Shown in pieces: positions 48,193-51,097 of a stretch of DNA of 64,000 nt. The notes under the pieces are model-generated. The model did not search any database. It was not told the DNA's origin and was given only the letters and a program-made list of their open reading frames with translations. The number at the start of each line of letters is the position of its first letter. Positions within the stretch are counted from its first letter, which is position 1. The position numbers were made by a program, and so were the translations under genes. Source of the DNA: Desulfomonilaceae bacterium (GTDB lineage Bacteria > Desulfobacterota > Desulfomonilia > Desulfomonilales > Desulfomonilaceae); contig JAVHLK010000002.1 of the NCBI GenBank assembly GCA_031082285.1, positions 1-64,000 on the forward strand, read 5' to 3'.

Positions 48193-49020
48193 GTGTGGAA
48201 TTTCCTTGATCAATCCTTTTTCACAGCTTGGATTCCTCTACTACATCTTATGGGATGTTTCAACGGGACCACAAGATAGCGTAGTCATAAGAAATGGCAA
48301 GCACAAAAACAACGGGGGGAGATTGGGAATCAGACACGAGAAAAACAAGAAAGGACCATACACGAGGGAGCCTGTTCGAGTAGGGGCCCCGCGTGTATCG
48401 CGGGATGCCTGCCCGCAGAGAGAGAAGAGAGGGCAAGCAGAATCCGGGGAAAGGGGCCTTTTGAAAAAGGTCCCCTTCCCCCGGACCCCCATCCCCATAA
48501 ACTTCCAACTCTTCGTAGCGATGCCGGCGACCTGGCGTTCTACGGGAATTCCGGGGACACCATACATAATTCGAGACAGCCGGGGTACACATTACTGATT
48601 CCGTCGACGGGGGCCGCTCTTTCATAGCATCGTTTCCCGGCTCGTCTGTCGTGCATCGTAGTCCTCGGCCGTCCACCCATGTCGCTCGGCGTGGTACTCG
48701 CTTGACGGACTCTTGTGGGGGTGAAGCGTTTGTGGTAACGGTTGAGACGCTGACCCGTCGGAACCCGGCACAGGGACGACCCGAAAGGCCGGGAAAACGT
48801 CGCCGGCAAGAAACGGAGTTATGTCCCTCGAAAACTGGGCGTCAATGGGCTGTTTAACCATTACGCTGTGAGTAGACTTTGCCTTGATTTCACGGCCCGA
48901 ATAAGAGGATCAGGCGTTTTCCAACCGGGCGAGTGGGGTTTCACGCCACGTATGCAGTTTTCGTGCGCCGCAATGCCCTGAGACGACAGGCGAGAGTGAA
49001 CTGGTCGAGGATATCATAAG
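48193..49020. other. long spacer with repeat fragments
   Basis: No gene was supported. A GC-rich palindromic block CCCCGCGTGTATCGCGGGATGCC lies around 48388-48410 and resembles one at 54241-54268. A REP-like piece (AATTCCGGGGACACCATAC) lies at 48548-48566 and the repeat copy at 48587-48632. The ATPase gene's ribosome site GAGG lies near 49005. Confidence 0.45.
48587..48632 (+). repeat. left copy of a repeat bracketing the ATPase/DUF4276 genes
   Basis: The 46 bases begin with a 22-base block starting ACACATTACTGATT and continue with GGCCGCTC and TCATAGCATCG. The same order occurs at 50914-50961 in direct orientation, with two small indels and two substitutions. The two copies lie outside the ATPase and DUF4276-type genes, consistent with an inserted cassette or two REP-like elements. 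Confidence 0.65.
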
Positions 49021-50181
49021 ATGCGAAGTCGAACAGTCCCCATGCGTTTTTCAAAGATCAGGCTCGAGAATTGGAAGAACTTCGCAAGCGTCGACATCTC
49101 ACTCGAACAGCGCGCTTTCCTGGTGGGGCCCAATGCATCGGGGAAATCCAACTTCATTGATGTACTTAGATTCTTGCGTGATTTGGCCTCTGTTGGTGGC
49201 GGCTTTCGCGAAGCCGTACGCAGGCGCGGCGGTGTGAGTGCGATCCGCTGTCTTGCCGCGCGACGCAATCCGGATGTTCGAGTCCGCGTGGTCGTCGAGC
49301 CTGCCGGCAACTCGCCGCGGTGGGCATACGATCTCCGTTTCAATCAGGATAACCAGCGCCGACCAATTGTGAAACAGGAGACGGTATTGCGAGATGGGGA
49401 GACCGTGCTGGATCGCCCGGACGACGAGGACATGGAAGATCAGGAGCGTCTGACCCAAACGCACCTCGAACAGGTGAATGTGAACCGTGATTTCCGAGAA
49501 ATCGTGACCTTTTTCCAGTCAGTGCGGTACTTACACATCGTTCCACAACTCGTACGTGAGCCGGACCGGTCAGTAGGGAGAACCGGCGATCCTTTCGGAG
49601 GAGATTTCCTCGAGCAAATCGCCAAGACTCCGGAGCGTACGCGCAACGCACGCCTGAGAAGAATCCAAGATGCGCTTCGTGTTGCAGTTCCACAACTACT
49701 CGAAATTGCATTATGGCGCGATGCACGGGGCACACCGCACCTGCGCGGGAAATACGAACACTGGCGTCCACAAGGCGCATGGCAGACCGAAGAGCAGTTT
49801 TCCGATGGTACCCTCCGACTCATGGGCCTCCTCTGGGCGACCATGGACGGAAGCGGACCCTTGCTTCTCGAGGAACCGGAGCTTTCTCTTCATCCGGAAA
49901 TCGTTCGTTTCCTTCCCCAGATGTTCGCTCGTATCCAGCGGAGGTCGGGACGGCAAATCCTCATCAGCACTCACTCAGTTGACCTGCTCCGCGATGATGG
50001 GATCGGTCTCGATGAAACACTCTTGCTGCGACCGAGCCGAGAGGGCACCGTCATCGAGCCGGCCGGCAAACTTGAGGAGATCAATGACCTTTTGCAGGGC
50101 GGCCTCACGCTCGCCGATGCCGTGATCCCCAGGACACGCCCCGATAGGGTCGAACAACTCACGCTATTCGGGGATTTGTGA
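49021..50181 (+). CDS. AAA/ABC-type ATPase (RecF/SMC-like, COG4637-type)
   Basis: A 386-residue ATPase of the kind found in OLD-like and other phage-defence systems. Motifs are Walker A GPNASGKSN (36-44), the ABC signature-like FSDGTLRLMG (260-269), Walker B LLLEEPELSLH (281-291) and the switch histidine in ISTHSVDLL (315-323). The N terminus KIRLENWKNF is typical of the family. It lacks a C-terminal nuclease domain. The gene ends in TGA one base before the next ATG, so the DUF4276-type protein is probably its partner. ATG 49042 is an alternative start. Confidence 0.85.
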   Translation: MRSRTVPMRFSKIRLENWKNFASVDISLEQRAFLVGPNASGKSNFIDVLRFLRDLASVGGGFREAVRRRGGVSAIRCLAARRNPDVRVRVVVEPAGNSPRWAYDLRFNQDNQRRPIVKQETVLRDGETVLDRPDDEDMEDQERLTQTHLEQVNVNRDFREIVTFFQSVRYLHIVPQLVREPDRSVGRTGDPFGGDFLEQIAKTPERTRNARLRRIQDALRVAVPQLLEIALWRDARGTPHLRGKYEHWRPQGAWQTEEQFSDGTLRLMGLLWATMDGSGPLLLEEPELSLHPEIVRFLPQMFARIQRRSGRQILISTHSVDLLRDDGIGLDETLLLRPSREGTVIEPAGKLEEINDLLQGGLTLADAVIPRTRPDRVEQLTLFGDL

Positions 50182-50182
50182 G

Positions 50183-50791
50183 ATGCCTGGTGCCGTGGTC
50201 ATCTCTGCTGCCGTGGAGGGAATTGTAGACGAGTCCGTGATTCGCAGGCTGGTCACATACGTGGGCGCGATTCCCGGAAGCATCTGCGGAAAGACCGGCA
50301 AACAGGATATCCGTCTGAGGATTCAAGGGTATAATAGCGCTGCTCAACGCACCCCCTGGATTGTGCTCGTCGATCTGGACAACGATGCTCATTGCGCTCC
50401 CCCCTTGCGTGCTGCGTGGTTACCCAATCCTGCGCCTCAGATGTGCTTTCGAGTTGCGGTGCGTCAAGTCGAAGCCTGGTTATTGGCTGATCGCGAGAGG
50501 ATAGCCTCGTATCTCGCAGTGCGACGCGATATGATACCCGGCGATCCGGAATCCCTGGCGAATGCCAAAGATACATTGGTAAATCTCGCTCGCAAATCGC
50601 GGCGCAGGGAAATTCGGGAAGACATGGTGCCGAGGATTGGGAGCGGCAGAAGTGTTGGTCCCGCGTATTCGTCTAGAGTCATCGAGTTCGCTTCGAGACA
50701 TTGGCGGCCCGATGTTGCACGCTTGTACGCTGAGAGTCTGTCTCGCGCCGTCGAGTGTTTGAGGTCTTTGACAATAAGCCGGCGGTGCTAG
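50183..50791 (+). CDS. DUF4276-type protein with TOPRIM-like motifs
   Basis: A 202-residue protein. AVEGIVDE (10-17) places a Glu and an Asp like the first TOPRIM motif, and VLVDLDND (61-68) gives the D-x-D. RQVEAWLLAD (94-103) is the conserved-looking core of DUF4276-type proteins. It follows the ATPase by one base, so the pair resembles an OLD-family nuclease split into two chains. This reading is inference from motifs. Its transcription probably depends entirely on the ATPase gene promoter. Confidence 0.65.
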   Translation: MPGAVVISAAVEGIVDESVIRRLVTYVGAIPGSICGKTGKQDIRLRIQGYNSAAQRTPWIVLVDLDNDAHCAPPLRAAWLPNPAPQMCFRVAVRQVEAWLLADRERIASYLAVRRDMIPGDPESLANAKDTLVNLARKSRRREIREDMVPRIGSGRSVGPAYSSRVIEFASRHWRPDVARLYAESLSRAVECLRSLTISRRC

Positions 50792-51097
50792 AGAGAAAGC
50801 CTGTTTCGGCCGAAAGGAAATGTCCGGGCACCAATCGTTGATCAAGCATTACACCGGTCCCGGATTGCTGAATGCGAACAATCCCGTGAGTCAAATGGAA
50901 GGGAATTCGGGTGACACATTACTGATTCCGTCGACAGGGAGGCCGCTCCCTCATAGCATCGCGCGCAATTCCTGGGACACCATACTTGCTCGCAGAAGCA
51001 AGCAAGAGTCGCGCATGGTGTACCCCGAAGTCGGCGGTCTGATAGTCCGGGTTGAATCCGTCGAAAAGCGGGTGAGGACCGAACAATGATGACGATA
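50792..51097. other. spacer carrying the right repeat copy
   Basis: No gene is supported. The spacer contains the right repeat copy at 50914-50961 and then a REP-like piece AATTCCTGGGACACCATAC (50966-50984), followed by a small hairpin TTGCT-CGCAGA-AGCAA around 50986-51001. The order of the two pieces is inverted relative to the left side. Confidence 0.5.
50914..50961 (+). repeat. right copy of the bracketing repeat
   Basis: Direct repeat of 48587-48632 with the first 22 bases identical and the tail GGCCGCTC...TCATAGCATCG kept. Located 123 bases after the DUF4276-type stop codon. Confidence 0.65.

What the first reader, a model, noticed from the sequence alone, without database searches (positions are those of the whole stretch)
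48544..51001. Two-gene ATPase/TOPRIM-like cassette bracketed by repeats, a candidate defence system
A RecF/SMC-like ATPase without a nuclease domain is followed after one base by a DUF4276-type protein with VEGxxDE and DLDND motifs. Together they resemble an OLD-family nuclease in two chains. Copies of a 46-48-base repeat lie 48587-48632 and 50914-50961, on either side, with REP-like GGGACACCATAC pieces outside. Housekeeping genes (parC, a CoA dehydrogenase) flank the block.
Basis: partly seen in the sequence, partly recalled or inferred. Interest (0 to 1): 0.65.

Follow-up and report, generated by a model that had tools for sequence, protein, structure and literature searches.

The report
HEC-01 defence pair, sliding-clamp-type tail
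Two side-by-side bacterial genes encode an ATP-using sensor protein and a nuclease-like partner that match an already catalogued but poorly understood candidate anti-virus system (HEC-01), and the sensor ends in a short motif, kept by most relatives, of the kind that docks proteins onto the DNA-copying machinery.

Summary
The pair is real: 49021-50181 (A, 386 aa) and 50183-50791 (B, 202 aa), one base apart. It belongs to a catalogued candidate defence system, PADLOC HEC-01 (A E=4.5e-161, B E=2.1e-63), so the system is not new. B is a Toprim nuclease by predicted structure (nearest: OLD Toprim Z 9.1, PARIS AriB Z 8.7) and keeps E12, G39, D64/D66, E97 and K129 across 69 relatives. A is a Rad50/PtuA-type ABC ATPase head. 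B follows A in 92 of 99 informative loci from many phyla. One same-family genome has an 86% identical A at another site; none of the 17 searched has a detectable B. The defence reading is supported as a candidate. The repeats are real but belong to the genome's REP/RAYT transposon families, are not shared by the relative's copy, and probably are not the vehicle. New here: A ends in QLTLF. A QLxLF or related six-residue motif, matching the bacterial sliding-clamp-binding consensus, ends 69 of 100 relatives, against 4 of 2002 control ORFs. Best mechanism: an ATPase sensor docked on the sliding clamp that controls a Toprim nuclease. The clamp step is inferred from sequence and untested.

The parts
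49021..50181 (+). A: HEC-01A-type ABC/SMC-like ATPase, 386 aa
   Evidence: PADLOC PDLC04180 E=4.5e-161; Pfam AAA_21 1.1e-33; AlphaFold2 model pLDDT 94.3, matches PtuA, SMC and Rad50 heads at Z 19-22
49126..49149 (+). Walker A, GPNASGKS (A residues 36-43)
   Evidence: G36, G41, K42 and S43 invariant in 70 sequences
49801..49821 (+). ABC signature-like SDGTLRL (A 261-267)
   Evidence: S261, D262, G263 and R266 invariant in 70 sequences
49861..49881 (+). Walker B, LLLEEPE (A 281-287)
   Evidence: E284, E285, P286 and E287 invariant
50155..50169 (+). QLTLF (A 379-383), C-terminal motif matching the bacterial sliding-clamp-binding consensus
   Evidence: pentapeptide form in 57 of 100 A proteins and six-residue form in 12 more, against 4 of 2002 control tails; consensus from PMC12309361 and PMC4549789
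50183..50791 (+). B: HEC-01B, Toprim nuclease-like protein, 202 aa
   Evidence: PADLOC PDLC04194 E=2.1e-63; AlphaFold2 model pLDDT 96.5; nearest solved folds OLD Toprim 6nk8 Z 9.1 and AriB 8ux9 Z 8.7
50216..50218 (+). B E12, Toprim glutamate
   Evidence: 69 of 69 sequences
50372..50380 (+). B D64-L-D66, Toprim DxD
   Evidence: D64 69/69; D66 63/69, N in the other 6
50471..50473 (+). B E97, candidate second-metal ligand (like BpOLD E508)
   Evidence: 68 of 69, D in one; BpOLD residues from PMC6755086
50567..50569 (+). B K129, candidate catalytic lysine (like BpOLD K562)
   Evidence: 69 of 69
48547..48571 (+). REP-like end, class 1 (AATTCCGGGGACACCATACATAATT); surroundings, not part of the system
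   Evidence: same sequence type bounds a RAYT (Y1_Tnp) gene in a same-family genome, L207
48587..48632 (+). left copy of the 46-48-nt repeat; class 2 REP-like element; surroundings
   Evidence: similar to L215, which precedes a RAYT start
50914..50961 (+). right copy of the repeat; surroundings
50967..50985 (+). REP-like end, class 1, degenerate; surroundings

Best explanation
The pair is a HEC-01-type two-gene anti-phage system acquired horizontally. A is an ABC ATPase head that serves as sensor and scaffold; B is a two-metal Toprim nuclease held inactive by A and let loose, or switched on, during infection, as AriA controls AriB in PARIS. In this HEC-01 subfamily A is tethered through its C-terminal QLxLF motif to the DNA sliding clamp (DnaN), so that it watches the replication fork and reacts to phage replication or to hijacking of the clamp; B then cuts nucleic acid (host tRNA or DNA) and stops the infection. 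Shown by sequence or model: gene pairing, HEC-01 identity, intact ATPase motifs, Toprim fold and active-site residues, conserved tail. Inferred: defence activity, A-B contact, clamp binding, trigger and target of B.
For: HEC-01A and HEC-01B profiles match over full length. B follows A in 92 of 99 informative loci from 18 taxonomic groups that are mixed on the tree. Hma defence genes lie within three genes in a sample of 99 neighbours from 22 loci (HmaA 4 members, HmaB 4), HmaB directly after B in L131. B model: BpOLD Toprim Z 9.1 over 163 residues, AriB Z 8.7 over 161, well above generic Rossmann-like rows in aligned length; E12, G39, D64, D66, E97 and K129 conserved. A model: PtuA of Septu and retron systems, Z 21-22. 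Tail: QLxLF-type or six-residue form in 69 of 100 A proteins, 0 of 89 B tails, 4 of 2002 other ORFs; the commonest third residue is S, as in the QL[S/D]LF consensus. The tail swaps between five-residue, six-residue and other forms in several lineages (23 changes over three states); both QLSLF and QLSLPL are known clamp binders. Orphan A in L186 keeps QLELF.
Against: No experiment on this pair or on HEC-01 was found in the held papers. AlphaFold2 gives the tail a helix (377-383) with pLDDT about 87-91, which suggests it may pack on A rather than hang free. Of 99 A proteins, 15 have no recognisable motif and 15 more only weak or partial forms. Divergent HEC-01A-type paralogues, also in this genome, lack it. 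The pair stands alone here, between housekeeping genes, not in a defence island. A's nearest fold, PtuA, partners an HNH nuclease rather than a Toprim one.
Confidence: 0.55

Rival explanations
1. Same HEC-01 defence pair, but the QLxLF tail is an internal packing element or the dock for B, with no role for the sliding clamp; the system then works just like PARIS, with a freely diffusing ATPase cage that senses a phage protein.
For: The tail is modelled as a confident helix; A aligns to its last residue with the C-terminal part of PtuA; spacing from P374 to the motif is mostly fixed.
Against: The near-invariant Q, the S-rich third position and the repeated switch between five- and six-residue forms match clamp-binding motifs and are odd for a packing helix; orphan A in L186 keeps the motif.
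Confidence: 0.3
2. A DNA repair or chromosome-maintenance pair (RecF/SbcC-like) that uses the clamp for housekeeping work, not defence.
For: RecF/SMC-like fold; clamp-type tails are common in repair and replication proteins (PMC12309361).
Against: Patchy: 23 of 395 genomes of the phylum have a strong B match; only 1 of 17 same-family genomes has a close A and none a detectable B; phyla are mixed on the A tree; neighbours include Hma.
Confidence: 0.08
3. A repeat-borne mobile cassette: the 46-48-nt repeats are ends or target duplications of an element that carries the pair.
For: Direct copies on both sides, only two in the genome.
Against: Repeats belong to the genome's REP/RAYT families; DNA shared with the 86% identical copy starts at 48964, inside the repeats; no transposase or integrase in the block.
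Confidence: 0.07

Closest known systems
HEC-01 (PADLOC, Hma-embedded candidate 01; cited to Payne et al. 2024 preprint, doi 10.1101/2024.01.29.577857, not read here)
   Same: Both proteins match the family's models over full length, same gene order; some relatives sit beside Hma genes.
   Different: Here it stands alone between housekeeping genes. The clamp-type tail is a feature of this subfamily that I found no description of.
PARIS (AriA/AriB)
   Same: ABC ATPase sensor and Toprim effector in two genes; B's fold is close to AriB (Z 8.7).
   Different: B matches no AriB profile; the sequence match of A to AriA models is far weaker than to HEC-01A; trigger and target unknown.
OLD family nucleases (class 1/2, GajA)
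   Same: ATPase and Toprim domains; the BpOLD Toprim is B's best structural match and its E, DxD, E and K set has counterparts in order.
   Different: Two chains rather than one; no GajB/UvrD-like helicase beside it.
Septu / retron effector PtuA-PtuB
   Same: PtuA is the best structural match of A (Z 22); ATPase plus nuclease logic.
   Different: PtuB is an HNH nuclease; B is Toprim.
AbiL (AbiLi/AbiLii)
   Same: A matches AbiLi at E=1.7e-22, an ATPase of the same broad class.
   Different: HEC-01A scores far better; no AbiLii match for B.

Membership tests
HEC-01 (PADLOC) | HEC-01A ATPase profile | tested here: met
   PDLC04180 4.5e-161, residues 8-382 on profile 1-380/382
HEC-01 (PADLOC) | HEC-01B profile, adjacent gene | tested here: met
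   PDLC04194 2.1e-63; one base apart
HEC-01 (PADLOC) | embedded in or near Hma | tested here: inconclusive
   true for several relatives, not at this locus; it is how the family was found, not a required part
HEC-01 (PADLOC) | protects against phage | not testable with these tools
   needs infection assays
Toprim domain | conserved glutamate, glycine after strand 2, and DxD (PMC6755086) | tested here: met
   E12 69/69, G39 67/69, D64 69/69, D66 63/69; strands 6-11, 30-36, 59-64
Toprim domain | Toprim fold | tested here: met
   model pLDDT 96.5; four of the first eight structural rows are OLD Toprim regions and two are AriB; Foldseek alone gave no match at E<=0.001
OLD class 2 two-metal site | E404/T506/E508 and K562 counterparts | tested here: inconclusive
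   E97 and K129 fit E508 and K562 by order; T506 would be residue 95 (Q here, mostly E elsewhere); E404 would be D16 (D 33, S 31 of 69); residue-level superposition not available
OLD family | ATPase and Toprim in one chain | tested here: not met
   two ORFs
PARIS | AriB effector | tested here: not met
   no AriB profile match for B up to E=1; 13 HEC-01 profiles match instead
Gabija | GajB helicase beside GajA | tested here: not met
   neighbours are parC and a dehydrogenase
Septu | PtuB HNH partner | tested here: not met
   the partner is Toprim-like
Sliding-clamp client | QL[S/D]LF or QxxLF-type motif, often at the C-terminus | tested here: met
   QLTLF, three residues from the end; enriched in relatives
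Sliding-clamp client | binds DnaN through that motif | not testable with these tools
   needs a binding assay or complex prediction
Composite or insertion element | own transposase or integrase | tested here: not met
   none between the repeats

The most novel reading that the evidence does not exclude
A widespread class of two-gene Toprim defence systems is anchored to the replication sliding clamp through a C-terminal clamp-binding motif on its ATPase, so that immunity is read out at the replication fork, guarding the clamp against phage takeover or sensing phage replication.
Probability: 0.45. Interest if true: 0.75.

Novelty: new member of a known kind. Interest (0 to 1): 0.45.

Why it matters
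HEC-01 is catalogued, but I found no described mechanism in the papers held here. The conserved tail gives a concrete, cheap test of how it senses infection. If it binds the sliding clamp, this would be a defence system whose sensor is docked on the host's replication machinery, which would tie phage sensing to the replication fork, and simple point changes could separate sensing from killing.

Tried and rejected
Repeats as mobile-element ends: rejected as above. Empty site in relatives: parC neighbourhoods of same-family genomes (L074-L083) hold neither the pair nor the dehydrogenase gene, and no same-genus genome is held, so the junction could not be compared. tRNA-linked integration: no tRNA in the window or beside the relative's copy. 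Foreign base composition: GC about 0.54-0.61 throughout, no island signal. Natural A-B fusion for a complex model: none seen. Plasmids and phages: only weak A matches, and no B match on plasmids; four clear A relatives on viral contigs. Sequence search of B against solved structures: nothing useful. Paper searches for a clamp motif in anti-phage systems found nothing relevant; the library holds no preprints and few subscription journals, so this is weak evidence of novelty. AriA was not among the 50 listed structural rows for A, which says nothing either way.

Full report
What is there. A (49021-50181, 386 aa) and B (50183-50791, 202 aa) run on the + strand one base apart, between parC (and parE) on one side and a 3-hydroxyacyl-CoA dehydrogenase-type gene followed by branched-chain amino-acid transporter genes on the other, all of these on the - strand. 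The finding's coordinates and motifs hold. DUF4276 is only a weak Pfam match to B, below the curated cut-off.

What it is. PADLOC's models name the pair at once: A is HEC-01A (4.5e-161), B is HEC-01B (2.1e-63). HEC stands for Hma-embedded candidate; a paper on archaeal immunity says that several HECs, including HEC-06, showed antiviral activity in a preprint it cites (PMC12988326). I found no statement about a test of HEC-01 itself. In a sample of 99 neighbouring genes from 22 loci of relatives, HmaA and HmaB models each match 4 members, and in L131 HmaB follows B directly. No background rate was measured for these neighbours.

Distribution. A strong HEC-01B match (E below 1e-20) occurs in 23 of 395 genomes of the phylum. 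Among 17 same-family genomes only one has a close A (86% identity, a Desulfomonile tiedjei MAG, L038/L114), and there it lies at another locus, at a contig end, with B off the contig. Relatives of A at 73-75% identity occur in Betaproteobacteria and Acidobacteria, more alike than near-full-length ParC is within the family (58-70%). The A tree mixes phyla, although Cyanobacteria and Bacteroidota each hold together. This is the pattern of a gene pair that moves. B follows A in 92 of 99 loci with enough downstream sequence. A few A genes stand alone (L135, L140, L152, L186) or have a decayed B (L115, L169).

B is a Toprim nuclease. AlphaFold2 on 69 sequences from named genomes, viral contigs and the window gave pLDDT 96.5. 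Foldseek alone found nothing convincing, but structural re-alignment put the Toprim region of BpOLD first (Z 9.1, 163 of 198 residues), then AriB of PARIS (Z 8.7, 161 residues) and XccOLD (Z 8.2-8.5); unrelated Rossmann-like proteins align over only about 100 residues. Z values of 8-9 are moderate by the tool's own note; the case rests on their joint weight with the motifs. The three Toprim landmarks named in PMC6755086 are all present: E12 in 69/69, G39 in 67/69 just after strand 2, D64 in 69/69 and D66 in 63/69. E97 (68/69) and K129 (69/69) fall in the order of the second-metal glutamate and catalytic lysine of BpOLD. The window's B has all of them, so it is probably active.

A is an ABC ATPase head. 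Walker A, signature, Walker B and H-loop are invariant or nearly so in 70 sequences. Its model (pLDDT 94.3) is closest to PtuA of Septu and retron systems and to Rad50 and SMC heads, Z 19-22.

The tail. A ends ...EQLTLFGDL. In the bacterial literature QL[S/D]LF, more generally QxxLF, is the clamp-binding motif, QLSLPL is a tight-binding six-residue form, and PolC carries QLSLF at its C-terminus (PMC12309361); transposases carry QLxLF at their C-terminal ends and bind the clamp with it (PMC4549789). In 100 A proteins, 57 have the five-residue form in the last 20 residues and 12 more a six-residue form; in B tails 0 of 89; in other ORFs of the same loci 4 of 2002; in random 20-residue stretches of A 10 of 2000. 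Position 3 is most often S, position 5 is F in 52 of 57. On a tree built without the tail columns the tail switches repeatedly between five-residue, six-residue and other forms, for example QLTLGF and QLTLF among Bacteroidota. Two interchangeable spacings fit a peptide that binds the clamp pocket better than a helix that packs in one register. Against this, AlphaFold2 models residues 377-383 as a helix with fair confidence, and divergent HEC-01A-type paralogues lack the motif. Neither the relatives nor the control ORFs are independent samples, so the enrichment is not a probability.

How it may work. By analogy with PARIS, where a hexamer of the ATPase AriA holds AriB until a phage protein frees it to cut host tRNAs (PMC12409363), A would hold B in check. 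The tail suggests that A does so at the sliding clamp, sensing phage replication or clamp hijack. Defence, the A-B contact, clamp docking, trigger and target are all inferred.

The repeats. The two long copies are alike in 44 of 48 columns and unique in the genome. Their first part has the REP-like form GGGG-ACAC-TACTGATT, and L215 in the same genome has a similar sequence (local score 21.5-23 against a shuffled maximum of 12.5) followed within about 60 bases by the start of a RAYT gene. The GGGACACCATAC ends bound a complete RAYT (Y1_Tnp, 1.2e-12) in a same-family genome (L207), and in this genome they bound segments that keep the first about 20-30 and last about 45 residues of RAYT with the middle gone (L042, L043, L044). 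So the brackets are decayed REP/RAYT sequence. The 86% identical copy in the D. tiedjei MAG shares DNA with the window only from 48964, inside the repeats, so they are not part of what the two copies share. REP elements may have provided the landing site; that is not shown.

Verdict. A sound observation and a largely right reading of a known kind of candidate system; the new element is the clamp-type tail, which is directly testable at the bench.

Noticed in passing
L047:3491-5268 (G000:C271) and L046:4986-6266 (G000:C309): The same genome carries two more HEC-01-type loci of other subtypes (PDLC04144/04143 and PDLC04182), without the clamp-type tail.
   Followed up: partly
L045:4808-6115 (G000:C303) and L012-L024: A HEC-01A-like ATPase of unknown role is present in most same-family genomes, with variable, often acidic tails; possibly a vertically kept housekeeping gene.
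   Followed up: no
L042, L043, L044 (window's genome): REP-flanked segments of about 300 bases keep both ends of a RAYT gene with the middle deleted, like miniature non-autonomous elements.
   Followed up: partly
L042:1204-7292 (G000:C268): REP sites recur at an exact spacing of 3044 bases (1204/4248, 3940/6984), which suggests a tandem duplication of about 3 kb.
   Followed up: no
L194:10001-12443: A viral contig holds an A relative (64% identity) without B, followed by a second HEC-01A-type ATPase and a probable DNA methylase.
   Followed up: partly
L115:11158-11616 and L169:2953-3177: B genes with large deletions beside an intact A: the effector decays while the ATPase and its tail stay.
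   Followed up: no
L038:8383-9210: Next to the A copy of the D. tiedjei MAG lies a gene with a weak, sub-threshold AP2-domain match.
   Followed up: no
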